Assembly: GCA_017461775.1 (NCBI GenBank)
Contig: JAFTXD010000096.1
Location: 1 to 47,800, forward strand
Reading direction: 5' to 3'
Length of the DNA: 47,800 nucleotides
From: Lachnospiraceae bacterium
GTDB lineage: Bacteria; Bacillota; Clostridia; Lachnospirales; Lachnospiraceae
Below, piece by piece: positions 3,420 to 43,306 of the stretch. The position numbers and the translations under genes were made by a program. The notes beneath the pieces are model-generated. The model was not told the origin of the DNA, ran no database searches, and saw only the letters and a program-made list of their open reading frames with translations. The stretch's first letter is position 1. Every line of letters begins with the position of its first letter.

Positions 3420-4697
3420 ATGAATATTGAGAGACAAATTGAATTTGACAAAGTAAAAGAGATATGGGCTGATTTAGCTATTACGGACCTGGCGAAAGAA
3501 AAAATCAGAGATACACCCCTGTATTTTTCTGAAACGGAATTGAAAAAGCAATTAAGGGATACAACAGAAGCCAGGTTTCTGATTGAAAAAATGGGAACAC
3601 CGCCGTTGCAAAATATTACTGAAATAAAAGAGGTTTTAGTGATAGCTGAAAAGGGGGATTGTTTAACGCCTTATCAATTAGAGCGGGTAGAAAAAGTTTT
3701 GGTTGCAGTAAAACGGCTAAAGGATTATTTAGCAAGGGGGAAAATATATCAGAATTCCTTGGCTTATTACGACGAAAATCTGGATTCCATCTCAGAACTA
3801 CGAGAAGAAATATGCAGCAAAATTAGGAATGGAGCCGTGGATGATTATGCATCAAAGGAATTAGAGCAGATACGAAAGCAAATTGTAAAGTGCGAAGAAC
3901 AGATGAAGCAAAAGGCGGAGCAAATTCTACGTTCCAATATGGAATGCATGGCAGACAATTATTGTACCTTTAGAAATGGACGGATATGTCTTCCTGTGAA
4001 AAAGGATTATAAGTTTAAGATATCCGGCAGTGTTATAGATAAGTCTTCTACCGGCAGCACATTATTTATGGAACCATCAAGTGTTGCGAAATATTATGAA
4101 GAGCTGCAATTGCTCAAAATAAGCGAGGAAAATGAAGTATACAACATTTTGTACACCTTATCCGCTTTTGTTTTGGCATCTGCACCTGTACTAAATGCAG
4201 ATTTGTCGATGATTGAAAAACTGGATTTTATTTTCTCCAAGGGAAAATTAAGCATTGATATGGAAGCGACCGAGCCGACAATTAATACGGAACGAAGGAT
4301 GAGATTAATTGAGGCGCGCCATCCCTTGATGGATAAAACGATAGCAGTGCCATTACAGTTTGAGGTGGGGGAAAAGATACGAGGGATTGTGATAACAGGT
4401 CCGAATACGGGAGGAAAAACCGTAGCAATTAAAACGGTTATGCTAAATTGTATCATGGCGCAGTGTGGATTGCATGTCACATGTAAACAGGCGGATATCT
4501 GTATGAACAGTTCTTATCTGTGTGATATTGGCGATGGGCAGAATTTATCGGAGAATTTGTCTACATTTTCTGCACATATAACCAATGTGTTGGAAGTTTT
4601 AGGTGAAGCAAATAAGGACAGCTTTGTGATTATGGACGAATTAGGCTCCGGTACAGATCCTAACTTCATGAAGGATAAGAAGGAGGGAGCACAATGA
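3420..4697 (+). pseudogene. MutS2-type ATPase, truncated after Walker B
   Basis: The 425-residue frame has the core and ATPase of a MutS2-like protein: a helical lever region with charged coiled-coil segments (about 140-185), Walker A GPNTGGKT (about 327), the ENLSTFSAH switch motif, and Walker B in FVIMDELGSGTDP. Right after that motif the sequence stops matching the family, reads NFMKDKKEGAQ and ends. MutS2 proteins are usually near 790 residues, so the end of the ATPase domain, the dimer interface and any nuclease (Smr) domain are missing. The last codons look like the tail of a different gene, since their TGA overlaps the ATG of another short frame. I read it as a deletion scar. The start has AAAGGA 8 nt upstream. 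It is probably inactive. Confidence 0.8.
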
Positions 4698-32502: not shown

Positions 32503-33315
32503 ATGAATATTTTGCTGAATGTTATTTTAATATTGGTGGTGGTGTATCTGCTTTTAGTAGCACCCCGCACCTTTGGAGTGGTGGACAAGGGGCCCTTTCA
32601 TAACAGGGACTATGCGCACAGAGGCCTCTTTGACAATGCCTCAGATGCGCCGGAGAATTCCCTGGCGGCCTTTCGAAAAGCAGTGGAGGCCGGCTATGGC
32701 ATCGAGTGGGATGTACAGCTGAGCAAGGATGAGATACCGGTGATTTTTCATGATGCCACCCTGGAGCGTATGTGTGGCGTAAAAGGGAACGTATGGGACT
32801 TTACCTTGGAGGAACTAAAAAGCTTCCATCTGGCAAATTCCCAAGAAACCATTCCTACGCTGGAAGAGGCGCTACAGATGGTGGACGGCAAGGTTCCCTT
32901 GATTATTGAGTACAAGTTGGACCGGGTGCAGACCCGTGTCTGTGAGCTGGCAGACAAGCTCCTTAGGAGCTACAACGGCCCATACTGTATCGAAAGCTTT
33001 CATCCCCTTGCCCTTATCTGGTACCGGAAAAACCGGCCGGACATTATGCGTGGACAGCTTTCGGGAGAGTTTTGGAAAGAAGATAAACAGTATCGCCAAC
33101 TGCAGTATTATGTGGTGGCATATCTTCTCACCAACGTAGCATCCAGACCGGATTTTGTGGCTTACAATCATTTGCATTACAAGAACCTATCTCGTAGAGT
33201 TTTCGCCTTTCTGGGTGGTCTCTCCGTATGCTACACCGTGAAAAACCAGCCAGACTATGAGCTGGCAAGGAAAAACTTCTCAATGATTATATTTGACAGC
33301 TTTATACCCAGGTAA
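32503..33315 (+). CDS. Membrane-anchored glycerophosphodiester phosphodiesterase
   Basis: 270 residues. One N-terminal helix (1-20) is followed by a GDPD TIM-barrel with YAHRGLFDNASDAPENSLAAF (His39, Arg40), metal ligands Glu68 and Asp70 in GIEWDVQLSKD, and the second catalytic His83 in FHDATLER. It hydrolyses glycerophosphodiesters to glycerol-3-phosphate, or lipid headgroups near the membrane. The gene begins 8 nt after the MFS stop with AAGGAG, so it is the last gene of that unit and a terminator follows. Confidence 0.92.
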   Translation: MNILLNVILILVVVYLLLVAPRTFGVVDKGPFHNRDYAHRGLFDNASDAPENSLAAFRKAVEAGYGIEWDVQLSKDEIPVIFHDATLERMCGVKGNVWDFTLEELKSFHLANSQETIPTLEEALQMVDGKVPLIIEYKLDRVQTRVCELADKLLRSYNGPYCIESFHPLALIWYRKNRPDIMRGQLSGEFWKEDKQYRQLQYYVVAYLLTNVASRPDFVAYNHLHYKNLSRRVFAFLGGLSVCYTVKNQPDYELARKNFSMIIFDSFIPR

Positions 33316-33319
33316 ATCT

Positions 33320-33355
33320 AATCTCCCGCGATGCAGTTGCATCCGGGAGATTTTC
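33320..33355 (+). terminator. Terminator after the GDPD gene
   Basis: AATCTCCCG and CGGGAGATT enclose an inner GATGC/GCATC stem with an AGTT loop, followed by TTTTCT. Confidence 0.88.
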
Positions 33356-33362
33356 TATGCAG

Positions 33363-33648
33363 AAAAATGTGGGTTTGGGCGCCGGGGAGAAGGGGTGGGA
33401 GCGTGGGGCTTTCCTGTGGTGAATGCGAAGATATTTAGAGTATCTTAGAGTTCTGTTCATTACCCAGGGGCAAGTGGACAAGGATGTCCACTTGAGGAGG
33501 CACTGCGCAAGGACGCGCATTGCCTCCGACCCGCAGCTGGTCAAGAAACTTAATCAGAACTCTTAGATACTCTTAATATCGTAGCCCTGAACCACAGGAA
33601 AGCCCCACGCTCCCATCCCTTCTCCCCGGCGCCCAAGCCCACATTTTT
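33363..33648 (+). repeat. Giant hairpin element, copy 1: candidate structured RNA
   Basis: A 286-nt palindromic element. The outer stem (33363-33420 with 33591-33648) is 58 bp, broken only by two G.U pairs on the + strand. An internal loop (GAATGCGAA against GTAGCCCTGA) follows, then a 26-bp stem (33430-33455 with 33555-33580) with T.T mismatches at 33436 and 33446. The core has hairpin A (9-bp stem, loop AAGGAT, 33471-33494) and hairpin B (GGAGGCA/TGCCTCC, C.T mismatch, TGCGC/GCGCA, loop AAGGAC, 33496-33527). The outer stem ends in TTTTT. It lies between a terminator and the merR promoter. A possible promoter (TTGACA 33293, TCTAAT 33317) could transcribe it. A second copy is at 43026. Confidence 0.85.
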
Positions 33649-33659
33649 CCTCACCTTCC

Positions 33660-33688
33660 TTGGAAAATTCGTCAAAATATGGTAAAAT
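33660..33688 (+). promoter_or_regulatory. Promoter of the merR-type gene
   Basis: TTGGAA and TAAAAT are separated by 17 nt, just after the giant hairpin, so the hairpin is not part of the merR message from this promoter. Confidence 0.6.
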
Positions 33689-33719
33689 AATGTAGGGGAT
33701 TTGGTGAGGAAGAGAAGTT

Positions 33720-34562
33720 ATGAAGTATAAGACCAGTGATTTATCAAAAATGTTGGATGTATCTGCAAATACCATTCGAAGATTTGCGGAAAAGGGATAT
33801 TTGAGCCCGGATAGAAATGACCAGAATCAGTATCGGCATTTTGGTGATGTGGATGTGGAGAAAATCACCTATATCAGCAAATACCGGAAAATTGGATTTG
33901 GTCATGAAGAGATTGCAGCCATGCTGAATGCCGATATTTTCCAGACCTGCGAGATTTATCAGAAAAAAATGGATGAGCTGGATTTGGAGATTGCCCGATT
34001 GCAGTCCCTGCGCCATATGGTGAAGGATGATGTGAACATGATGAAAGGCATCACAGAATATGGAAAGGATTTCATCGAAAGAAACAGCGTAGCAATGCAC
34101 TATGTATCCTATAAAAGTGGAAATCAGATTGTGAGCAGCCCCGGCAAGCAGAAGGTACTGCACCGTTTTATCTATGATTTTCCGGAAATCGAATACATAT
34201 ATATTATTCGTAAAGAAGATATTCTGAAACGAAATATCCGCTACGAGGAGGCCATTGGAATCCGGAGTAAGCTGGCCCAGAAGAAGAATATCGATGTGGA
34301 GGATAAGGATATTGAGTGCTACCCAGAGCAGGAGAGTGTTCTTAGGATTGTAAGACTCCCCATTGATTTTAATGATGAAAAACATGAAGAGAAGGAGATA
34401 ATCCAAAAAATTCTGTTCGATGATTTTCTGGAGTATATGGATGAAAAGGGATATATTTTGGATGGAGATGCGGTAGGTGTGAAGATTGGCTTCTCCAAAG
34501 AGGATGGAAAAGAGATGCAATATGTGGTATTAGGGATGCCTATAGTAAAAAAGTATGATTGA
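33720..34562 (+). CDS. MerR-family transcriptional regulator
   Basis: 280 residues. The N-terminal winged helix (KTSDLSKMLDVSANTIRRFAEKGYLSPDRND, then YRHFGDVDVEKITYISKYRKIGF) is MerR-type, followed by a dimerisation coiled coil (about 80-110). The C-terminal 160 residues form a ligand-type domain, possibly GyrI-like, ending in YVVLGMPIVKK. It has no Cys pair for metal sensing in the usual place. MerR proteins twist promoters with overlong spacers; exactly such a promoter lies downstream, ahead of the giant pectin enzyme, so that gene is the likely target and a pectin breakdown product the likely signal. GAGGAAGAG precedes the ATG. Confidence 0.88.
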   Translation: MKYKTSDLSKMLDVSANTIRRFAEKGYLSPDRNDQNQYRHFGDVDVEKITYISKYRKIGFGHEEIAAMLNADIFQTCEIYQKKMDELDLEIARLQSLRHMVKDDVNMMKGITEYGKDFIERNSVAMHYVSYKSGNQIVSSPGKQKVLHRFIYDFPEIEYIYIIRKEDILKRNIRYEEAIGIRSKLAQKKNIDVEDKDIECYPEQESVLRIVRLPIDFNDEKHEEKEIIQKILFDDFLEYMDEKGYILDGDAVGVKIGFSKEDGKEMQYVVLGMPIVKKYD

Positions 34563-34569
34563 CAGGTGG

Positions 34570-34609
34570 AATTGGTTGTATGTTTTGGACAATACAACCA
34601 ATTTTTTTT
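34570..34609 (+). terminator. Terminator after the merR-type gene
   Basis: A 12-bp stem AATTGGTTGTAT / ATACAACCAATT is followed by a run of T. Confidence 0.9.
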
Positions 34610-34635
34610 CGTTTAATCTGTAGTCTCCCCCTTTG

Positions 34636-34666
34636 TTGACTGTGACACGGTGTCATACTTTACACT
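34636..34666 (+). promoter_or_regulatory. MerR-type promoter: 19-bp spacer with perfect dyad
   Basis: TTGACT (34636-34641) and TACACT (34661-34666) are 19 nt apart, too far for ordinary sigma-A use but standard for MerR-activated promoters. The spacer holds the perfect dyad TGACAC-G-GTGTCA (34643-34655). The promoter lies 45 nt before the giant pectin-enzyme start and 74 nt after the merR-type stop. Confidence 0.75.
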
Positions 34667-34710
34667 AAAAACAGTGGCGAATTATCGTTAAAACAAATGG
34701 GAGGATTACA

Positions 34711-37700
34711 ATGAAACGCAAGACAAGACAACTTTTCAAAAGAGTCATTGCAATGGTATGTGCCGTTCTTACGGTATTTACCGGTATGTTTTCTGACGTG
34801 AGCACCGTGAATGTGCAGGCGGCAGGCGAGCATACCCTTTGGGTTGTGGGCGACTCTACCGTCAGCGCTTTTTCGGACGCATATTATTATCCGAGATACG
34901 GCTACGGAACTCAGTTAGGTAACTATCTGAATGATACCTACACTGTACAGAATCTGGCAGTGTCAGGAACAAGCTCTAAGAGCTTTACAACACATGCAAA
35001 CTATTCAACTTTGACTGGTGGCATAAAGGCAGGGGATACCTTGGTGGTTGGCTTTGGTCATAATGACGAAAAGGCCGACGATTCAGCAAGATACACCTCC
35101 CCTTTAGGTGACTATACCACCGAGGGATCCTTTGCTAAGAGCCTTTATGATAATTATATCAAGATGGCTCAGGACGCAGGCGCAGAGGTTATTCTCTGTA
35201 CCCCTATTGTAAGAAGAACTGCTACCACCGGTTCCTGGAGCAACAACCAGCTCCATGTGGCAAACGATGGTGACTACGCACAGGTCATCCGTGATCTGGG
35301 TAGTGCAGTAAGTGTGCCGGTAGTTGATTTAACTACACTTACTAAGAATCTCTATGATTCCTTAGGCGCAGAAGAGACTTTATATCTTCACGCATGGACC
35401 AAGAATGATGCAGGCAGCGTGGACAACACCCACCTGAATATCTATGGTGCAAAGAAGGTGGCATGGTTATTTGCAAATGCCGCAGCTTCTACCTCAACCA
35501 ATCTGGCGTCTGCTATCACTTTAGCAGCAGGCGAGCCTGCAAAGGCAACCGATTTGGTATCTAATCCGGACTTCGTGGAAAAGGACTATGATAACAATTT
35601 AGCACAGAGTACCTTATGGGCAGATTATACCATTGGTGACGTTGCATTTAAGGGTACTGCTTTCGGTAATCTGGGAGGAAATCCAAGTGCCTCCAATTAT
35701 ACCTTTGAGACAGATGCTAACGGCGATATGCATATGGTGGCTATGAATAATAAGGGTAAGATTGCAAGTACCGGAGACGGATTAATCATGTACTACTACA
35801 AGGTGCCTGTGACCAGTAGCTTCAGCTTATCTGCAAAGGCTACCGTGAATTCCTTTGATGCAAACTCACAGGTGGCATTTGGTTTGATGGCCCGTGATGA
35901 TATGTACATCGATTTATATGATCAGACCATTGCTTCCGATTATGTGGCGGCAGGTACTTTGGGTACCGGTTGCAATTGCTTCTATCGTAAGGATGGAAAG
36001 CTTGGCGGTAAGGCAGCTCTTTCCGGCACTCTTGCAGCGGGCAACAGCTACAATTTAAGCATTGTAAGCAATTCTGATGGTTATACCTGTACCTTTGGTG
36101 ATGAGACTCCCCAGAGTGCAGGCTACGATTTCGCACTTACCAGTGTGGATTCTGAGTATGTATACATTGGTATGTTTGTAGCAAGAAATGCAAACATTAC
36201 CTTCAGCAATATTGAACTTATTGTGGATGGCGTGACCATCGCAAGTACCGTAAAGCAGGAATACAGCGTAGCGGTGAGTGCAGAGGAAAACGGCAGCGCC
36301 AAGGCAAATACTTCTTCCGCAGTGGCAGGTACTACCGTAAATCTTACCGCAACTCCTAATGCGGGCTACTATCTGAAGGAGTGGCAAGTGGTAAGTGGTG
36401 ATGTGACCATCACTGACAACAGCTTTATAATGCCAGCCGGGAACGTAGAAGTGAAGGCAGTATTTGAAGCATATCCTACCTCATGGAATTTCCGCAGCGG
36501 CTCCGCAATTATGGGTACCGAAACGGGAGCTTTAGTGCAGGGCGCAACCCAGACCGTTGCAGGACTTACCATTGATGCAACCGCATCCGGTGCGAAGTTT
36601 GACTCTTATAACAGAAGCGATTGGGCGCAGGTAAATAATGGCACCGTCATTACCATTCCGGTAGAGGGCGCAAGTAAGGTAACCGTTACCTCCTATGGCG
36701 CAGGTGTGTTTACTGTAGATGGTCAGGCAGCTACAGAGAAGACCCAGACCTTTATCTGCACAGGTACTGACAATAAGGTAACCCTTACCTATACCGCAAA
36801 TGATTATCTTGGTGCTATCGAGGTAGTACCTTATGCTATGGTACAGGAAGGTACCGTAGATTTTAAAACTTCCAATCTTGCAGACGCTAAGGGCTTCTCA
36901 GGAGCAAGTATCGTGGATTCCGGAACCGGGCATGGTCTCCAGACCAAGGCGGCAGATGCAACCCTGACCCTTACCTTATCTGATTATGCCAATGTGGTAG
37001 TTACCACTTGTAGATATGGTGCAGGTCTTTCCGGTACTATGACAGCTTCTTCCGGAACTGTTTCTACAGCGGAAGTAGATGAGAGCGGAGCAAATGCACC
37101 TGTTTATACCGTAGCATACGCAGAGCCGGGTGAGCTCACCCTTACCTTTGCGTCAAATATGTATATTCACAGCGTAGCTGTAGAGTATGTGGAACCCATC
37201 GTTGGTGGTAACAGCATCACTGTAGCTGCTACCGAAGGTGGTAGTGCAGCAGCAGATGCGTCTGTAGCAACAGAAGGTACCAAGGTATCTCTTACTGCAA
37301 AGGCTGACGCAGGGTACTACTTCAAGGAGTGGCAGGTAGTGAGTGGCGGCGTGACCGTCACAGATAACAGCTTTACCATGTCTACAGGCAACGTAGAGGT
37401 AAAGGCTGTATTTGAACCATACAGATATGAGTGGAATTTCCGCAGTGGTTCTGCCATCATGGGAACCGAGAACGGTATCCTGGTACAGGGTAAGGCGGAG
37501 AGCTTTGAAGGATTAACCATCGATGCAACCGCATCCGGTGCAAAATTTGATGCATATAACAGAACTGATTGGGCACAGGCAAATGCCGGCACTGTAATTA
37601 CTGTTCCTGTAGAGGGCTCCAGTAAGGTGACCGTAACCTCTTATAGTGCAGGTTCCTTCTCCGTAGACGGCGAGGCAGCAACGGAGGCTTCACAGACCTT

Positions 37701-40700
37701 CTTTTGCACCGGTGAGGATAATAAGGTTACTATTGCATTTACCGCAAATGATTATCTTGGTTCCATTGCTGTAGTTCCTTATTCAGAGGCTAAGGCTGGC
37801 ACCATCGCATTTGGCAGCGCAGCAGCAGATGCTAAGTGGGACGGAGTTGCTTTAACTGACATGGCATTAGGAAACTCCCATGGTATCCAGACCAAGGCAG
37901 AGGGTTCAACCATTACTCTTACCTTAACAGATAAGGCAAACCTTGTAGTAACTACTTGCCGCTATGGTGCAGGTACCGGAGCAACTATGACAGCTTCTTC
38001 CGGTGAAGTAACCACTTCTACTTGGGATGAGAGTGGCGCAGACGGTATGGTATTTACCGTTATGGGCGTGGAAGCCGGTACTGTGACTCTTACCTTTGGA
38101 AGTAATGTATACATCCATGAGCTTATGGTGGAATACATGAAGGAGGTAGGAAATAGAAATATCGATGTTTGGGATTTAGGTGGTGTTTTAGAAAGCGATA
38201 CTAAGACTTACACCAATAATGTTACTCCTGAGGCAATTATTGCTGCAGGTATCAATAAGACCTATCCGGGTAATGTAGTATTCGGAGACTTGACCGTTGT
38301 AGCAAACAAGGGAAGTGACAGAATTTATACTACAGTAGAGGCATTAAAGGATGTTACCTACGGAACTTATGGTTATGCAACCAAAGAGTATGCAGATGGT
38401 TATACCTCTGCAGGCTGCTACTACACCAACGGTACCGGTGGTGCAAGCAGAAGATATCTGACCATCGCCAATGTACAGGCTGGGGATAAGATTGTATTCT
38501 ACGGCGGTATCCATGGTGGTTCCGATACCCAGTTCATCTTTGAAGGACAGGGAACGGCAAGTGCGCAGAAGGAAACCGTAGATATTAAGGCGGCAGAATT
38601 TGAAAGATTTGAATTTGTAGCAGAATATACCGGCACCTATAAGATTTGGGAAAATGCTGCCGGAAAAGCATTATATCACAGGGTAGTGAGAGTACCGGGC
38701 GTAGCAGTAAGCGGTACTATCAGTGTGGCTGAGGGTGACAACAAGTACATCGGAACCGCACATTCTGTAAAGTTTATTAACGATACTACCAAGCAGGAAA
38801 CCATGGCAGTGCTGGATGGTGATACCTTTACCGCAACCCTGGCTCCTGGCTACAGCTATACCGCAGTACTTATGGATGCGGTTGGTTATGGATTTACCGC
38901 AGACAGTAGAGTGGTTACCACCACCGATACAGAGGGCTTAACCGGTAAGACCGGCGTTAATCTTGTAATCGAGCCCAAGGAAACTTATACCTTCTCCGGT
39001 AAGATTACCGGCTTTGCAGATGGTTATGATGTTTCCAAGCTTTCGGTAACCATGGTTCCACCCGCAGACTCTACTCTGCTCAGTGTGGATTTAACCATTG
39101 ATGAGTCCTTAAGCTTCACCGCAATGCTGGAGCCGGATTCTGATTACACCATTCAGATTGCAGGTGTAAATGACTATGAGGTAAAGAGTGAGCTTGTAAT
39201 CAACAAGAATGCAAATTACAGTGCAGATATTCAGGTTGGATTAAAGCCTATGTACAAGGTAGACGGTGGATTTATCGGACTTGCAGAGGGGGCATCCTTA
39301 ACCGCACTCAGCTTTGAAAATGTGGAAGATGGCTATACCTACACAGCGGACGTAACCGCAGAAGGATACTCCATCAGCTTAAGAGATGGTTCTTATCAGG
39401 CAAAGGCTACCATTGATGGTTATAGCACAATCACCCATGTGGTAGTTGCAGGTGCAGCAGTAAGCAAGGATATTATGTTTAAGTCCACCGCAGCAGCTCC
39501 CGCACTTGATTGGGTAGCGGACGTATACGTAGGATATCCTGATAAGGCAAACAATTATGACACCGTAAGCGAGGCAGTAGCAGCTTGTGCAGCGATGAAG
39601 CCTTCTAAGGAAGAAGAGCGTATTACCGTACATATTGCTCCTGGTACCTACAGAGAGCAGATTGTAGTGAATACACCTTATATCAGCTTTGTAAACGATA
39701 CGGACGAAGAAGTATTATTAACCTGGTATTATGGTATCGGATATCAGTACTACAGTATTGATTCCACCGGATATTATAATCCTGAAAACGCATACGATCA
39801 GTATGCAAAGGGTAAGCCAAATGACTGGGGCTGTGCAGTATATATCAAGCCTGCAGCAACGGCATTCCGTGCAGAGGGCATTACCTTTGAAAATTCCTTC
39901 AACCGTTATATTACGGACGAAGAGCTTTTGGACGGCGCAGAGCCTTCCGGTTCAGAAGCAATCAGCTTTGAGAGAAAGTACGGCGCAGACGTACAGAGTA
40001 AGGCAGCTACCGAGCGTGCGGCAGCAGTGGTTATTAAGGCGGACAAGGTTGAGTTTATGGACTGTTCTTTCTTAAGTAGCCAGGATACCTTACTTACCGG
40101 TAATGCAGGTTACGATGTATACTTCAAGAACTGCTTTATCGAAGGTCAGACAGACTATATCTATGGTGATGGTAATGCAATCTTTGATGCATGTGAACTC
40201 AGCTTCAAGGGCTACAGTGCAGGAAGCACCGGCGGATATATTACCGCAGCAAAGCCTTCATCAGGTGTAAGCGGATACTTATTCAGAAACTGTGTAGTGA
40301 CCGCAAATGATGAGTTAACCGTAACTCCGGGCTATCTCGGAAGACCTTGGGGACCGGACGCGAAGGTAATGTTCGTAAATACCAAGTTAGAAAGCGCAGA
40401 CCTGATTACTGCAAAGGGCTGGCATGATATGAGTGGTGCAACACCGGAGAATGCAAACTTCTACGAGTATAACACCACCGATATGAATGGTAATGCAGTG
40501 GATACCTCTTCCCGTAGAGGTAAGGTTGCGGACGAAGCTACCGCGGCAGCATGGACCAGAGAATACTACTTTGGCGACTGGATACCTTACTACTATGTAG
40601 AAGAAGCTACAAGTGTTGCATTTGAAGTAGCACCTTTCGTAACCGATAATGGTGACATCAACACACCTTATCCGGGACATACCCTGACCGTAGGATATTC

Positions 40701-42975
40701 CTTAGGTGATGCAAATGATGCAAACGATGCTTCTAAGATTGAATGGTATCGTGTAAAAGAGGGCGCAACGGACGTATTAGTAAAGACCTCTTATGCAAGC
40801 ATTGACAAGACCTATGTAATCGCTTCTGAGGATATCGGATATCAGATTAAGGTAGTGGTAACTCCTGTAACCGTAAGTGGTGTAAGTGGCACCGCAGCTT
40901 CCTACACCGTAGAAGAAGTGGTAAGAGACGGTTATGAGAATCCGGATGCATCAGGCTCTGATGTTATCTTAGGCGATGGCGTAAACATTTTCCTTGTAGG
41001 TGATTCTACCGTGAAGGATTATTCCGCAGCAGGCATCTGGTCCGGCGGAAAGGCAAGAAACGAAGGCGCATGGGGTGAATTCTTCCAGAGCTACTTCAAC
41101 GACGAAAAGGTAACGGTTGTAAACTATGCAAACGGCGGTAGAAGTGCAAGAAACTTCATCAATGAAGGTTCTCTGGACTTAGTGGCTGAGAAGATTGGTG
41201 AGGGAGATTATCTCTTCATCCAGTTCGGTCACAATGACTGTGCAAACGGTTCCGGATATCTGGCAGACAGATATGTACCTCTTGGTGAGCCGGATGCAAA
41301 TGGTGTATATCCAACCACCGCAGGTACCAAGGTGGCAACACCTGCAGAGCTTGCAAATGCTGGCTATGGTGATACCTGTTATACTTATGACTGTGGCGGT
41401 ACCTATAAGTGGTATCTGATGCAGTATGTTGAGGTGGCAAGAGAAGCGGGAGCTACTCCTGTACTGGTAACTCCGGTATCCAGAATGTACTACAATTCTG
41501 ACGGAACCATTAAGGCGCATCATGATTCTACCGATGCAACCACCGGTACACAGGTAACCTCGAACAATGCTTACGTAACAGCAGTAAAACAGCTGGCAGA
41601 AGAGCAGAATATTCTGCTTGTGGATGGTTTTGAATTAACCAAGGAGCTTTTTGAGGATGCATATACTGCATGCGGCAGCAGTACTTATGGCGCACAGATT
41701 ATGCATACCGGTGATAAGACTCATAACAATAAGTTGGGTGGTTTGATTGAGGCAGCAGCAATTGCTTCTGCAATCCAGAATATGGAATTAAATATTTCCT
41801 ACGCAGTGAAGACTCCTGCACAGATTCTGGGCGAAACTACCGACGGAACTACCGTATTTAGCGTAAATGGAAGCAGTGTACTTACTGCATATGATATTAA
41901 CAGTGATTATGCGGATAGAGCTTCTTATTGGGAAGGCATCGGCCAGACCATGTTTGCAGCGATTGCAGAGAAGGCAGAAGCCCTTGCAGGAGAAGGTGAA
42001 GCGGATCCTACACCTACTGCAGCACCGACGCAGTCCCCTGCACCTACTGCGGCGCCTACCGAGTCCCCTGCACCTACCGCAGCGCCTACCGAGTCCCCTG
42101 CACCTACTGTAGCACCTACCGAGGCGCCTACAGCAACTCCTTCTGTCGATGATGTGAAGGCAGAGACCAGCAAGACAATGGATGCTTTAGAGGAGCTTGC
42201 AAACGTAGAAAATGTAGAAGAGCTTGTAGAAAAGATTGCAGATATTGTTGAGGAATATATTGAAACAATTTGTGATGTCTGGGCAGAGGCAACTACCGTT
42301 TCAGAAGATGTAATGAAAGAACTGGCTGATGTAGAGAAGCAGATTACAGAGCTGAATCCTGAGGCGAAGGTAATTCCTGAAAATCATCAGGATTGCGATT
42401 TCCCGATGCAGAAGGTAGAGAATGCACTTCTTTCTGCACCAGCAGGTGGTAGATTGTATGTGAAGTCAGCAACACTGGAGGATGAGCAGAAGACAGCAGC
42501 AAAGACTCTCAATGTAACCGATGCACAGCTTGCAGGAGCAGAAGTATTTGATATGACCCTGCTTGATGATGCTCGTACAGAGGCAGAGCTGGCAGCTCCG
42601 GTTCGTGTAACCTTTGGAATTACGGAAGGAATGACCGGCAAAGTACTTAAGCTGGTACATTTCGGTGAGAAGACGGAGCTTTTGGATGTAACTCTTAGTA
42701 CAGATGGAAAGAGTGCAAGTGCAGTAGTGACCAGCTTCAGTGAGTTTGCATTGATTGCAGTTGCTGATATTCAGCAGCCTGCTCCGGTAAATCCGCCCGC
42801 AAGCAGTACAGGCAATACAGGAAATACTGTGATTGATACAATTATAAGCGTAGTGTCACCGAAGATGGGTGATATGGGTAGTATGGTACCATGGCTTGTA
42901 ATTGGAACCATCGGTTTAGTATGTGTTGTTGCAGCGTTCGGAGTTTCCGTGCAGCGTAAAAAGAAAGAAGATTAA
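34711..42975 (+). CDS. Giant surface pectin esterase: CE8 plus two SGNH acetylesterase domains
   Basis: 2754 residues with a signal peptide (about 1-37). Domain 1 (45-255) is an SGNH/CE12-like esterase: GDST (Ser49), GFGHND (114-119), DNTH (Asp238, His241). Residues 517-830 and 831-1145 are tandem modules, each a bacterial surface repeat (GYYLKEWQVVSGDVTI type) plus a beta-rich NFRSGSAIMG unit. 1150-1595 are beta-sandwich modules. 1600-1960 is a CE8 pectin methylesterase with SSQDT (Asp1792), QTDYIYG (Asp1815) and LGRPWG (Arg1878). 2090-2400 is a second SGNH esterase (Ser2099, QFGHND 2171-2176, Asp2335, His2338). A Pro/Thr linker (2433-2477), an acidic helical region and a C-terminal SPKMGD/helix/basic tail follow. 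It would strip methyl and acetyl groups from pectin at the cell surface. Confidence 0.93.
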   Translation: MKRKTRQLFKRVIAMVCAVLTVFTGMFSDVSTVNVQAAGEHTLWVVGDSTVSAFSDAYYYPRYGYGTQLGNYLNDTYTVQNLAVSGTSSKSFTTHANYSTLTGGIKAGDTLVVGFGHNDEKADDSARYTSPLGDYTTEGSFAKSLYDNYIKMAQDAGAEVILCTPIVRRTATTGSWSNNQLHVANDGDYAQVIRDLGSAVSVPVVDLTTLTKNLYDSLGAEETLYLHAWTKNDAGSVDNTHLNIYGAKKVAWLFANAAASTSTNLASAITLAAGEPAKATDLVSNPDFVEKDYDNNLAQSTLWADYTIGDVAFKGTAFGNLGGNPSASNYTFETDANGDMHMVAMNNKGKIASTGDGLIMYYYKVPVTSSFSLSAKATVNSFDANSQVAFGLMARDDMYIDLYDQTIASDYVAAGTLGTGCNCFYRKDGKLGGKAALSGTLAAGNSYNLSIVSNSDGYTCTFGDETPQSAGYDFALTSVDSEYVYIGMFVARNANITFSNIELIVDGVTIASTVKQEYSVAVSAEENGSAKANTSSAVAGTTVNLTATPNAGYYLKEWQVVSGDVTITDNSFIMPAGNVEVKAVFEAYPTSWNFRSGSAIMGTETGALVQGATQTVAGLTIDATASGAKFDSYNRSDWAQVNNGTVITIPVEGASKVTVTSYGAGVFTVDGQAATEKTQTFICTGTDNKVTLTYTANDYLGAIEVVPYAMVQEGTVDFKTSNLADAKGFSGASIVDSGTGHGLQTKAADATLTLTLSDYANVVVTTCRYGAGLSGTMTASSGTVSTAEVDESGANAPVYTVAYAEPGELTLTFASNMYIHSVAVEYVEPIVGGNSITVAATEGGSAAADASVATEGTKVSLTAKADAGYYFKEWQVVSGGVTVTDNSFTMSTGNVEVKAVFEPYRYEWNFRSGSAIMGTENGILVQGKAESFEGLTIDATASGAKFDAYNRTDWAQANAGTVITVPVEGSSKVTVTSYSAGSFSVDGEAATEASQTFFCTGEDNKVTIAFTANDYLGSIAVVPYSEAKAGTIAFGSAAADAKWDGVALTDMALGNSHGIQTKAEGSTITLTLTDKANLVVTTCRYGAGTGATMTASSGEVTTSTWDESGADGMVFTVMGVEAGTVTLTFGSNVYIHELMVEYMKEVGNRNIDVWDLGGVLESDTKTYTNNVTPEAIIAAGINKTYPGNVVFGDLTVVANKGSDRIYTTVEALKDVTYGTYGYATKEYADGYTSAGCYYTNGTGGASRRYLTIANVQAGDKIVFYGGIHGGSDTQFIFEGQGTASAQKETVDIKAAEFERFEFVAEYTGTYKIWENAAGKALYHRVVRVPGVAVSGTISVAEGDNKYIGTAHSVKFINDTTKQETMAVLDGDTFTATLAPGYSYTAVLMDAVGYGFTADSRVVTTTDTEGLTGKTGVNLVIEPKETYTFSGKITGFADGYDVSKLSVTMVPPADSTLLSVDLTIDESLSFTAMLEPDSDYTIQIAGVNDYEVKSELVINKNANYSADIQVGLKPMYKVDGGFIGLAEGASLTALSFENVEDGYTYTADVTAEGYSISLRDGSYQAKATIDGYSTITHVVVAGAAVSKDIMFKSTAAAPALDWVADVYVGYPDKANNYDTVSEAVAACAAMKPSKEEERITVHIAPGTYREQIVVNTPYISFVNDTDEEVLLTWYYGIGYQYYSIDSTGYYNPENAYDQYAKGKPNDWGCAVYIKPAATAFRAEGITFENSFNRYITDEELLDGAEPSGSEAISFERKYGADVQSKAATERAAAVVIKADKVEFMDCSFLSSQDTLLTGNAGYDVYFKNCFIEGQTDYIYGDGNAIFDACELSFKGYSAGSTGGYITAAKPSSGVSGYLFRNCVVTANDELTVTPGYLGRPWGPDAKVMFVNTKLESADLITAKGWHDMSGATPENANFYEYNTTDMNGNAVDTSSRRGKVADEATAAAWTREYYFGDWIPYYYVEEATSVAFEVAPFVTDNGDINTPYPGHTLTVGYSLGDANDANDASKIEWYRVKEGATDVLVKTSYASIDKTYVIASEDIGYQIKVVVTPVTVSGVSGTAASYTVEEVVRDGYENPDASGSDVILGDGVNIFLVGDSTVKDYSAAGIWSGGKARNEGAWGEFFQSYFNDEKVTVVNYANGGRSARNFINEGSLDLVAEKIGEGDYLFIQFGHNDCANGSGYLADRYVPLGEPDANGVYPTTAGTKVATPAELANAGYGDTCYTYDCGGTYKWYLMQYVEVAREAGATPVLVTPVSRMYYNSDGTIKAHHDSTDATTGTQVTSNNAYVTAVKQLAEEQNILLVDGFELTKELFEDAYTACGSSTYGAQIMHTGDKTHNNKLGGLIEAAAIASAIQNMELNISYAVKTPAQILGETTDGTTVFSVNGSSVLTAYDINSDYADRASYWEGIGQTMFAAIAEKAEALAGEGEADPTPTAAPTQSPAPTAAPTESPAPTAAPTESPAPTVAPTEAPTATPSVDDVKAETSKTMDALEELANVENVEELVEKIADIVEEYIETICDVWAEATTVSEDVMKELADVEKQITELNPEAKVIPENHQDCDFPMQKVENALLSAPAGGRLYVKSATLEDEQKTAAKTLNVTDAQLAGAEVFDMTLLDDARTEAELAAPVRVTFGITEGMTGKVLKLVHFGEKTELLDVTLSTDGKSASAVVTSFSEFALIAVADIQQPAPVNPPASSTGNTGNTVIDTIISVVSPKMGDMGSMVPWLVIGTIGLVCVVAAFGVSVQRKKKED
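42004..42150 (+). repeat. Pro/Thr-linker minisatellite inside the giant gene
   Basis: A 30-bp unit encoding PAPTAAPTES is repeated in frame about four times with small changes. It separates the second esterase from the C-terminal anchoring region and probably varies in length between strains. Confidence 0.8.
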
Positions 42976-42979
42976 GATG

Positions 42980-43012
42980 AGGAAGAGGTGGGTATAATGC
43001 CCGCCTCTTCCT
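42980..43012 (+). terminator. Terminator after the giant pectin esterase gene
   Basis: AGGAAGAGG / CCTCTTCCT with an inner GGG/CCC, followed by a short AT tract (TATATAG). The T-run is weak. Confidence 0.65.
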
Positions 43013-43025
43013 TATATAGTGGAAG

Positions 43026-43306
43026 AAAGTATGGTAGGGGCAGGAATGGGGAGCGCACCGGAATAGGGCAGGGGAATTTTGAATATGGAAATATTTTAGA
43101 ATTTCTTAGCTTACTGCTCTATACACAGCGGAATTCGAGCATGGATGCTCGAATTAGGATGCACTGCGAATGGACGCGCATTGCATCCGACGCGTTGCTA
43201 TTTCTAACACATATGCAGTAAGCTTAGAAATTCTTAAATATTGGAATCTGAAAAATTCTCCTGCCCTATCCCGGTGCGCTCCCCATTCCTGCCCCTACCA
43301 TACTTT
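43026..43306 (+). repeat. Giant hairpin element, copy 2: candidate structured RNA
   Basis: A 281-nt homologue of the element at 33363. The outer stem (43026-43080 with 43252-43306) is 55 bp with one G.U and one A.C. A 9x9 internal loop (GAATATGGA against GGAATCTGA) precedes a 28-bp stem (43090-43117 with 43215-43242) with T.T mismatches at 43097 and 43107. Hairpin A has 9 bp and loop ATGGAT (43132-43155); hairpin B has GGATGCA/TGCATCC, a C.T mismatch, TGCG/CGCA and loop ATGGAC (43157-43188). The end runs into TTTTT. Pairing partners differ from copy 1 but match in position. It lies between a terminator and the hydrogenase promoter. Confidence 0.85.

What the first reader, a model, noticed from the sequence alone, without database searches (positions are those of the whole stretch)
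33363..43306. Two homologous 285-nt giant hairpins with covarying arms: a possible new structured RNA family
Copies at 33363-33648 and 43026-43306 share a four-part architecture: long outer stem, about 9x9 internal loop starting GAAT and ending CTGA, a 26-28-bp stem and a two-hairpin core. Stem sequences differ but remain paired: between the T.T mismatches, G-C (33440/33570) becomes A-T (43101/43231) and A-T (33442/33568) becomes T-A (43103/43229). Hairpin B changes GAGGCA/TGCCTC to GATGCA/TGCATC, and hairpin A is wholly different yet still 9 bp. Unpaired features stay fixed: two T.T mismatches exactly 10 positions apart, a C.T mismatch in hairpin B, two GGA hexaloops. In copy 1 both imperfect outer pairs are G.U on the + strand. 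Both ends run into TTTTT. This argues for a selected + strand RNA fold.
Basis: seen in the sequence. Interest (0 to 1): 0.87.

Follow-up and report, generated by a model that had tools for sequence, protein, structure and literature searches.

The report
Mobile hairpin DNA with self-matching arms
The two giant hairpins are copies of an RNA family that is already catalogued (TwoAYGGAY), but in this gut bacterium they look like a scattered mobile DNA element whose long outer arms differ from copy to copy while each pair of arms still matches almost perfectly.

Summary
The inner ~165 nt of both hairpins is Rfam RF01731, TwoAYGGAY, listed in 2010, so the family is not new. New here: (1) this incomplete genome holds 37 copies, its sister species one, and at least 32 of 138 genomes of the genus have any; one sister site is cleanly empty; in G006, 22 of 30 fetched copies share a repeated unit, most with inverted ends. 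It spreads like a MITE; no enzyme was seen. (2) The 39-72-bp outer stems lie outside the Rfam model and differ between copies, yet each pair of arms is ~95% complementary. Alignable own pairs show 142 mirrored to 33 one-sided columns, many of them transversions and indels. (3) Own outer-arm mismatches show no clear + strand preference (25:18). This favours arm-to-arm DNA copying over RNA selection for the outer stems. Against it: one sister pair changes mostly one-sidedly (6:49), and the core keeps a mild + strand signal. No expression data. A relative has a second, non-Rfam core with similar arms.

The parts
33362..33420 (+). Copy 1, 5' outer arm (59 nt, G-rich)
   Evidence: 97% complementary to 33591-33649; outside the Rfam match
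33423..33587 (+). Copy 1, TwoAYGGAY core (inner stem with two T.T mismatches, two GGA hairpins)
   Evidence: RF01731, 111.8 bits, model 1-168; mismatches
33591..33649 (+). Copy 1, 3' outer arm (C-rich, with a T run at its end)
   Evidence: sequence
43026..43080 (+). Copy 2, 5' outer arm (G-rich)
   Evidence: fold; one search gives 43026-43117 and 43215-43306 (outer plus inner stem), 89% complementary
43084..43248 (+). Copy 2, TwoAYGGAY core
   Evidence: RF01731, 113.9 bits, model 1-168
43252..43306 (+). Copy 2, 3' outer arm (C-rich, running into a T run)
   Evidence: fold
33323..33349 (+). Terminator-like inverted repeat just before copy 1, followed by ATTTTCT
   Evidence: read by eye; not picked up by the scans
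42981..43011 (+). Terminator-like inverted repeat just before copy 2
   Evidence: read by eye; not picked up by the scans
33720..34562 (+). MerR-family regulator, between the two copies
   Evidence: PF13411, E 7e-13; best listed match in sister genome G032 28%
34711..42975 (+). 2754-aa GDSL / pectinesterase protein, between the two copies
   Evidence: PF13472 and PF01095; not at the G032 site
32503..33315 (+). GDPD gene, left neighbour; in G032 a GDPD gene directly precedes the hydrogenase gene
   Evidence: PF03009
43396..44907 (+). Iron-only hydrogenase gene, right neighbour of copy 2
   Evidence: PF02906; 97% identical in G032

Best explanation
The hairpins are copies of a high-copy, mobile, palindromic DNA element that carries the TwoAYGGAY core. 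It sits in gaps between genes, in part beside terminators. Its long outer stem is not passed on as a fixed sequence and, in this genome, is not kept by selection on an RNA. Mutations, transversions and small indels included, are copied from one arm to the other, most likely when the nascent strand folds back on the palindrome during replication (template switching). So each copy drifts to its own arm sequence while staying self-complementary. The conserved core (T.T mismatches, GGA loops) is what the moving or binding machinery recognises, as folded single-stranded DNA or as RNA. Shown: copy number, patchy occurrence, an empty site, copy-specific self-complementary arms, mirrored changes, near strand symmetry of own arm mismatches. 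Inferred: template switching as the process, recognition of the core, an enzyme acting in trans.
For: 37 copies in the own genome, all over the cut-off, 1 in sister species G032 (85% complete); 32 of 138 genomes of the genus have any, a lower bound because 18 candidates a genome were scored. Clean empty site in G032 for copy L021, right after a terminator T tract. In G006, 22 of 30 fetched copies share a repeated unit, most of them with inverted ends near TAAATGGAAAGTTAGT / ACTAACTTTCCATTTA. Outer stems in 30 of 37 own copies: 1661 matched columns, 78 not. Arms of different copies barely align: mean score 10.6, control 8.7 (the better of reversed and complement), core identity mean 74%, 435 pairs. 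Mirrored against one-sided columns: L008/L009 9:1, L037/L066 18:1, L069/L041 20:1; 17 of 435 own pairs passing a score limit, 142:33, with 82 transversions and 26 indel columns among the mirrored (the 17 pairs share 17 copies, so they are not independent). Own outer-arm mismatches 25 G.U-type, 18 A.C-type, 22 transversion-type. Per-lineage core cells G.U 75: A.C 60, against 6S 45: 11 by the same rule. + strand more stable than - in 53 of 106 cores; 6S in 30 of 30. Terminator-like sites next to 11 of 57 element flanks, 9 of 285 shuffled and 1 of 166 distant ones.
Against: No transposase or recombinase was seen: by eye none among the 15 largest clusters of similar flanking ORFs (441 ORFs, 150 loci) nor in a 2-kb G006 unit. 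No target duplication is visible at the clean empty site. In G079/G085 arms change mostly one-sidedly (6 mirrored: 49 one-sided over eight loci) and arm self-identity is 84% against 96% in the own genome, so mirroring is not general. Signs of a + strand RNA: on core pairs predicted for both strands G.U 59: A.C 35, and alignment folding energy lower on + in 5 of 6 lineages, though by 0.7-7.9 kcal/mol against 23 for 6S; outer-stem mismatches in G006 35:11 (14 patterns of near-identical copies); with 60-nt flanks the folds hold 584 G.U on + and 473 on - over six genomes, though cores alone hold 223 and 257; G006 cores fold slightly better on + (p 0.016); the window copies too (-209.8/-201.4 and -174.6/-173.9). 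GGA is strand-specific. Copies of one family are not independent, so 53/106 and 30/30 contrast two families only.
Confidence: 0.57

Rival explanations
1. CsrA-sequestering small RNA: transcribed TwoAYGGAY hairpins present GGA loops that bind and titrate CsrA, as proposed in PMC4333381; many copies raise the dose.
For: GGA is in loop 2 of 38 of 38 aligned cores and in loop 1 of 34 of 38. CsrA genes are in 50 of 61 relatives, two in the own genome, and in 9 of the 10 TwoAYGGAY genomes (the exception G007 is 59% complete). Published motif match (passage read). Mild + strand G.U excess.
Against: CsrA is about as common in genomes without the element (41 of 51). Four of 38 cores lack GGA in loop 1. 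No promoter-like site was found on the + strand from 33200 to copy 1 or from 42900 to copy 2; those found lie after the hairpins. Tandem orientation to neighbouring genes is even (++ 36, -- 33 of 122 loci). It does not explain copy-specific outer arms or their mirrored changes.
Confidence: 0.21
2. Two-way transcription terminator or 3'-end insulator: a giant hairpin ending in a T run on both strands stops read-through from either side.
For: Copies are rare in gaps between divergent genes (8 of 122) against convergent (31) and tandem (69) ones. A and T runs close the outer stem of some copies, copy 1 included. As palindromes they run G-rich in and C-rich out on both strands (own genome).
Against: A separate terminator-like repeat already adjoins 10 of 30 own copies by scan and both window copies by eye. 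Several outer ends lack a T run. A terminator needs neither a conserved 165-nt core nor GGA loops. At least one orthologous site in G032 does without.
Confidence: 0.12
3. attC-like recombination sites: folded single-stranded hairpins that let a recombinase exchange gene cassettes; the MerR-pectinesterase segment between copies 1 and 2 would be such a cassette.
For: The segment is bracketed by two same-strand copies and is absent at the G032 site. Fixed unpaired bases in the stem. The resemblance to attC is recalled, not tested.
Against: No recombinase seen beside copies (by eye). attC core-site motifs and the spacing of copies were not tested. The sites printed look like single inserts, not cassettes.
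Confidence: 0.06

Closest known systems
Rfam RF01731 TwoAYGGAY (listed in PMC2864571; clan CL00106)
   Same: Both window copies match the full 168-position model far over the cut-off.
   Different: The Rfam match leaves out the long outer stem. The 39-72-bp copy-specific outer stem, the high copy number and the mobile behaviour are not in the passages that I read of the five listed papers (of seven) that hold the name; the word 'mobile' does not occur in the 2010 paper's main text.
Bacterial MITEs and palindromic intergenic repeats (REP/BIME, Correia, ERIC; recalled)
   Same: Short, many copies, intergenic, palindromic; in G006 framed by inverted ends.
   Different: In the own genome copies hardly share arm sequence. 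No partner transposase seen.
Template-switch mutations that keep hairpins paired (PMC8794818; abstract and passages read)
   Same: Mirrored multi-base changes that keep stems perfect.
   Different: That paper reconstructs rRNA gene histories and mentions microRNAs; here 40-70-bp arms on a multicopy element have changed almost throughout.
CsrB/RsmZ-type CsrA-binding RNAs (PMC4333381, passage read)
   Same: GGA motifs in hairpin loops.
   Different: Two sites at most, dozens of copies, no evidence of transcription here.

Membership tests
RF01731 TwoAYGGAY | Covariance-model score over the gathering cut-off, full length | tested here: met
   111.8 and 113.9 bits, cut-off 43, positions 1-168
RF01731 TwoAYGGAY | Two hairpins with AYGGAY loops | tested here: met
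   Copy 2 ATGGAT and ATGGAC; copy 1 AAGGAT and AAGGAC, A in place of Y. Among 38 cores GGA in loop 1 of 34, in loop 2 of 38
RF01731 TwoAYGGAY | Acts as an RNA | tested here: inconclusive
   Only indirect: weak strand asymmetry; no expression data
MITE | Short, multicopy, patchy between relatives | tested here: met
   37 copies against 1 in the sister species; at least 32 of 138 genomes
MITE | Terminal inverted repeats shared by copies | tested here: inconclusive
   Seen in G006; not in the own genome, where arms are copy-specific
MITE | Target-site duplication | tested here: inconclusive
   None visible at the one clean empty site L021/L192; TA at both ends of G006 copies could be one
MITE | Related autonomous transposon or transposase | tested here: inconclusive
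   None seen by eye in flanking ORFs of 150 loci or a 2-kb G006 unit; no family search was run on them and the rest of the genomes was not searched
CsrA-binding sRNA | GGA in hairpin loops | tested here: met
   Loop 1 in 34 of 38, loop 2 in 38 of 38
CsrA-binding sRNA | Transcribed and bound by CsrA | not testable with these tools
   Needs RNA-seq and a gel shift
attC site | Simple sites of a recombinase at the ends, with a cassette recombinase | not tested
   Only flanking ORFs were looked at, no recombinase seen

The most novel reading that the evidence does not exclude
Intergenic sites in this genus carry long palindromes whose arms belong to the site and are rewritten from each other, while unrelated hairpin cores (TwoAYGGAY, a second non-Rfam core, others) come and go at the apex: a class of mobile hairpins that enter or seed palindromes, whose long stems are made by copying and not inherited. 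If so, much of the covariation behind RF01731 comes from DNA copying and not from RNA selection.
Probability: 0.25. Interest if true: 0.75.

Novelty: new variant of a known kind. Interest (0 to 1): 0.52.

Why it matters
Covariation is widely taken as proof that a sequence works as a structured RNA. Here copies of a catalogued RNA family show covariation that, in the outer arms of this genome, is mirrored, rich in transversions and indels, and without clear strand preference, which is what DNA arm-to-arm copying predicts. If confirmed, a strand test (G.U against A.C) should be run before long-stem families are called RNAs, and these elements become a natural, multi-locus record of template switching in bacteria.

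Tried and rejected
Cross-lineage G.U:A.C count: 36:34 for 38 aligned cores against 196:1 for 30 6S RNAs. Dropped as main evidence because one search showed that the 19 rows from other genomes carry 126 cells that are no pair of any kind, so misalignment alone would give equal G.U and A.C (in the 19 own rows: G.U 6, A.C 2); replaced by per-lineage counts. A strand control on 6S by arm alignment was too weak to use (19:12).

L069/L041 as strict orthologs: same neighbour gene and same terminator at the same place, but the cores are not each other's nearest relatives, so independent insertion at one site is not excluded.

Composite element bracketing the MerR-pectinesterase segment: suggestive only; no other pair was tested. 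Loss of SbcCD as the reason palindromes persist: not supported; own, G032, G079 and G085 genomes have SbcD over the cut-off, and 7 of 17 genomes with two or more copies do, against 75 of 138 in all (p 0.30). Phages and plasmids: no match to copy 1; one exact core pattern: none in viral contigs and another none in genome contigs (that answer warns that records near the window may be left out). An autonomous copy in G006: none recognised by eye in four stretches.

Rows dropped: of 37 own copies, outer arms were counted in 30. Left out: L015, L017, L025, L026 (contig ends), L028, L032 (arms cut short by contig ends) and L024, which has full flanks but no outer stem. L067's arm starts 26 nt out and runs into a longer inverted repeat. 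Of 37 flank probes, 25 had a match in G032 that I used (not all need be orthologous), and 8 of those sites were printed.

Full report
What is there. Both hairpins exist as described and are far beyond chance. A covariance-model scan places the inner ~165 nt of each in Rfam RF01731, TwoAYGGAY, at 111.8 and 113.9 bits (cut-off 43). The family was listed in 2010 as a probable RNA, probably not cis-regulatory, from human gut, gamma-Proteobacteria and Clostridiales (PMC2864571, passages). PMC4333381 proposed that it binds CsrA (passage). Of seven papers in the held library that hold the name, five were listed, and I read passages of those five; none of the passages speaks of mobility, copy number or a long copy-specific stem.

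Copy number and spread. The window lies in a 2.9-Mb, 172-contig assembly, 82% complete, with 37 copies over the cut-off. Of 61 genomes (own and 60 relatives) 10 have the family, all in the same genus. Over 138 genomes of the genus it is 32, a lower bound since 18 candidates a genome were scored. Sister species G032 (hydrogenase 97% identical) has one copy. By contig coordinates G032 is the MAG RGIG4572, a Lachnospiraceae bacterium from roe deer rectum (my inference). Of 37 flank probes, 25 had a usable match in G032. At L021 the G032 site is cleanly empty: the homology stops and resumes at adjacent bases, just after a terminator T tract. Some other sites in G032 hold different inserts. Of four that I folded, two are strong foldbacks (211-nt piece, MFE -93.7 against -44.4 shuffled; 730-nt piece, -411.8 against -186.1) and two are weak (-58.3 against -51.7; -117.7 against -101.2). 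In complete genome G006, 22 of 30 fetched copies share a repeated unit of about 0.45-0.7 kb, most with inverted ends. The element therefore spreads like a MITE. By eye no transposase is among the 15 largest clusters of flanking ORFs (441 ORFs of 150 loci); no family search was run on them.

Between copies 1 and 2. In G032 a GDPD gene is followed directly by the hydrogenase gene; the MerR regulator, the 2754-aa GDSL/pectinesterase gene and both hairpins are missing at that place. Whether the pair of hairpins carried the segment in is open.

The outer stem. Thirty of 37 own copies were counted: arms 39-72 bp (one, L067, 84), 1661 matched columns, 25 G.U-type, 18 A.C-type and 22 transversion-type mismatches and 13 gaps. 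One copy with full flanks, L024, lacks the stem. Arms of different copies hardly align (mean 10.6 against 8.7 for the control; 9 of 435 pairs score 20 or more, no control does), while cores are 74% identical on average. So the arms were not passed on as a fixed sequence, or have since drifted far, yet each pair matches.

How the arms change. In pairs that can still be aligned, columns in which both arms changed alike outnumber one-sided ones: L008/L009 (cores 95% identical) 9:1, L037/L066 18:1, same-site pair L069/L041 20:1. Over 17 of 435 own pairs that pass a score limit it is 142:33, and the mirrored columns include 82 transversions, 34 transitions and 26 indel columns; these pairs share 17 copies and are not independent. 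Stepwise RNA compensation should favour transitions through G.U and should seldom mirror indels. Template switching between the arms of a palindrome can do both (PMC8794818, abstract and passages). Against this, eight orthologous loci of G079 and G085 (flanks 82-98% identical) show 6 mirrored and 49 one-sided columns, and their arms are 84% self-identical against 96% in the own genome. There the stems look as if they decay. The one-sided changes over all eleven pairs were G.U-type 22, A.C-type 15, transversion 13, gap 2.

Strand test. If pairing were kept for an RNA, G.U should be tolerated and A.C not. Per lineage, in pairs at least 70% Watson-Crick, the cores hold G.U 75 and A.C 60 (p 0.23); 6S RNA of the same genus, same rule, 45 and 11 (difference p 0.002). 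On pairs predicted on both strands it is 59:35 against 15:1 (p 0.019). The + strand is the more stable one in 53 of 106 cores, for 6S in 30 of 30. Results that point the other way: alignment folding energy is lower on + in 5 of 6 lineages (by 0.7-7.9 kcal/mol; 6S by 23); G006 outer stems have mismatches 35:11, though in 14 patterns of near-identical copies; folds with 60-nt flanks hold 584 G.U on + and 473 on -, summed over six genomes, while cores alone hold 223 and 257. Inner-stem mismatches by self-alignment are 25:23 over six genomes. Copies of a family are not independent, so this compares two families only. A mild + strand signal remains and leaves room for an RNA role.

Context. Gene neighbours by a simple ORF caller over 122 loci: tandem + 36, tandem - 33, convergent 31, divergent 8, the other 14 incomplete. 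Terminator-like sites adjoin 11 of 57 element flanks, 10 of 30 copies. The 5' arm is G-rich (41% G, 13% C in the own genome; skew 0.52 there, 0.56 in G079 and G085, near zero in G006 and G098). Because the element is a palindrome, this holds for both strands and says nothing about direction.

A second core. In 752 kb of G085 I met 17 places, plus one in G079, of another palindromic core of about 111 nt. Of 16 measurable copies 12 have arms scoring 18 or more; these are 82% self-matched (510 of 622 columns) and 36% G, and arms of different copies score 9.7 on average. The example tested reaches no Rfam cut-off. At one orthologous site G079 has TwoAYGGAY and G085 has this core; the 3' arms are homologous (41 of 50), the 5' arms hardly (33 of 48, gapped). 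For this core one strand folds better in 15 of 16 copies, with the same caveat of non-independence.

Judgement. The family is known; the outer arms, their mirrored change, the mobile behaviour and the second core are what is new, as far as the searches named here go. I hold DNA arm copying on a mobile palindrome as the most likely account of the outer stems (0.57), and leave the function of the core open between DNA recognition and a CsrA-binding RNA.

Noticed in passing
L430:15691-15930 (G085) and 17 further places: A second multicopy palindromic element with a conserved ~111-nt core and copy-specific, mostly G-rich arms; the example tested reaches no Rfam cut-off. At L430/L240 it occupies the site where the sister species has TwoAYGGAY.
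   Followed up: partly
L203 (G032), insert opposite own copy L064; related sequence in L194: A ~700-nt foldback, arms about 316 columns with 243 matches, MFE -411.8 against -186.1 for shuffled sequence; apparently another class of giant palindrome.
   Followed up: no
L184 (G032), insert opposite own copy L022: A ~190-nt palindrome, MFE -93.7 against -44.4 shuffled, at the site where the own genome has TwoAYGGAY.
   Followed up: no
window 33650-43025: MerR regulator plus giant GDSL/pectinesterase gene form a segment bracketed by the two hairpins and absent from the sister species at this place.
   Followed up: partly
L287 (G079) against L472 (G085): Where G079 has a truncated TwoAYGGAY element, G085 has only a bare palindrome of about 13 bp with the same outer bases: either an insertion into a hairpin loop or a collapsed palindrome.
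   Followed up: partly
G098:C50 (L279): TwoAYGGAY copies at 4206 and 5363 lie 1,157 bases apart in what looks like a tandem repeat; outer arms of several G098 copies contain a further repeat GGTGGTCCTGGGGAC.
   Followed up: no
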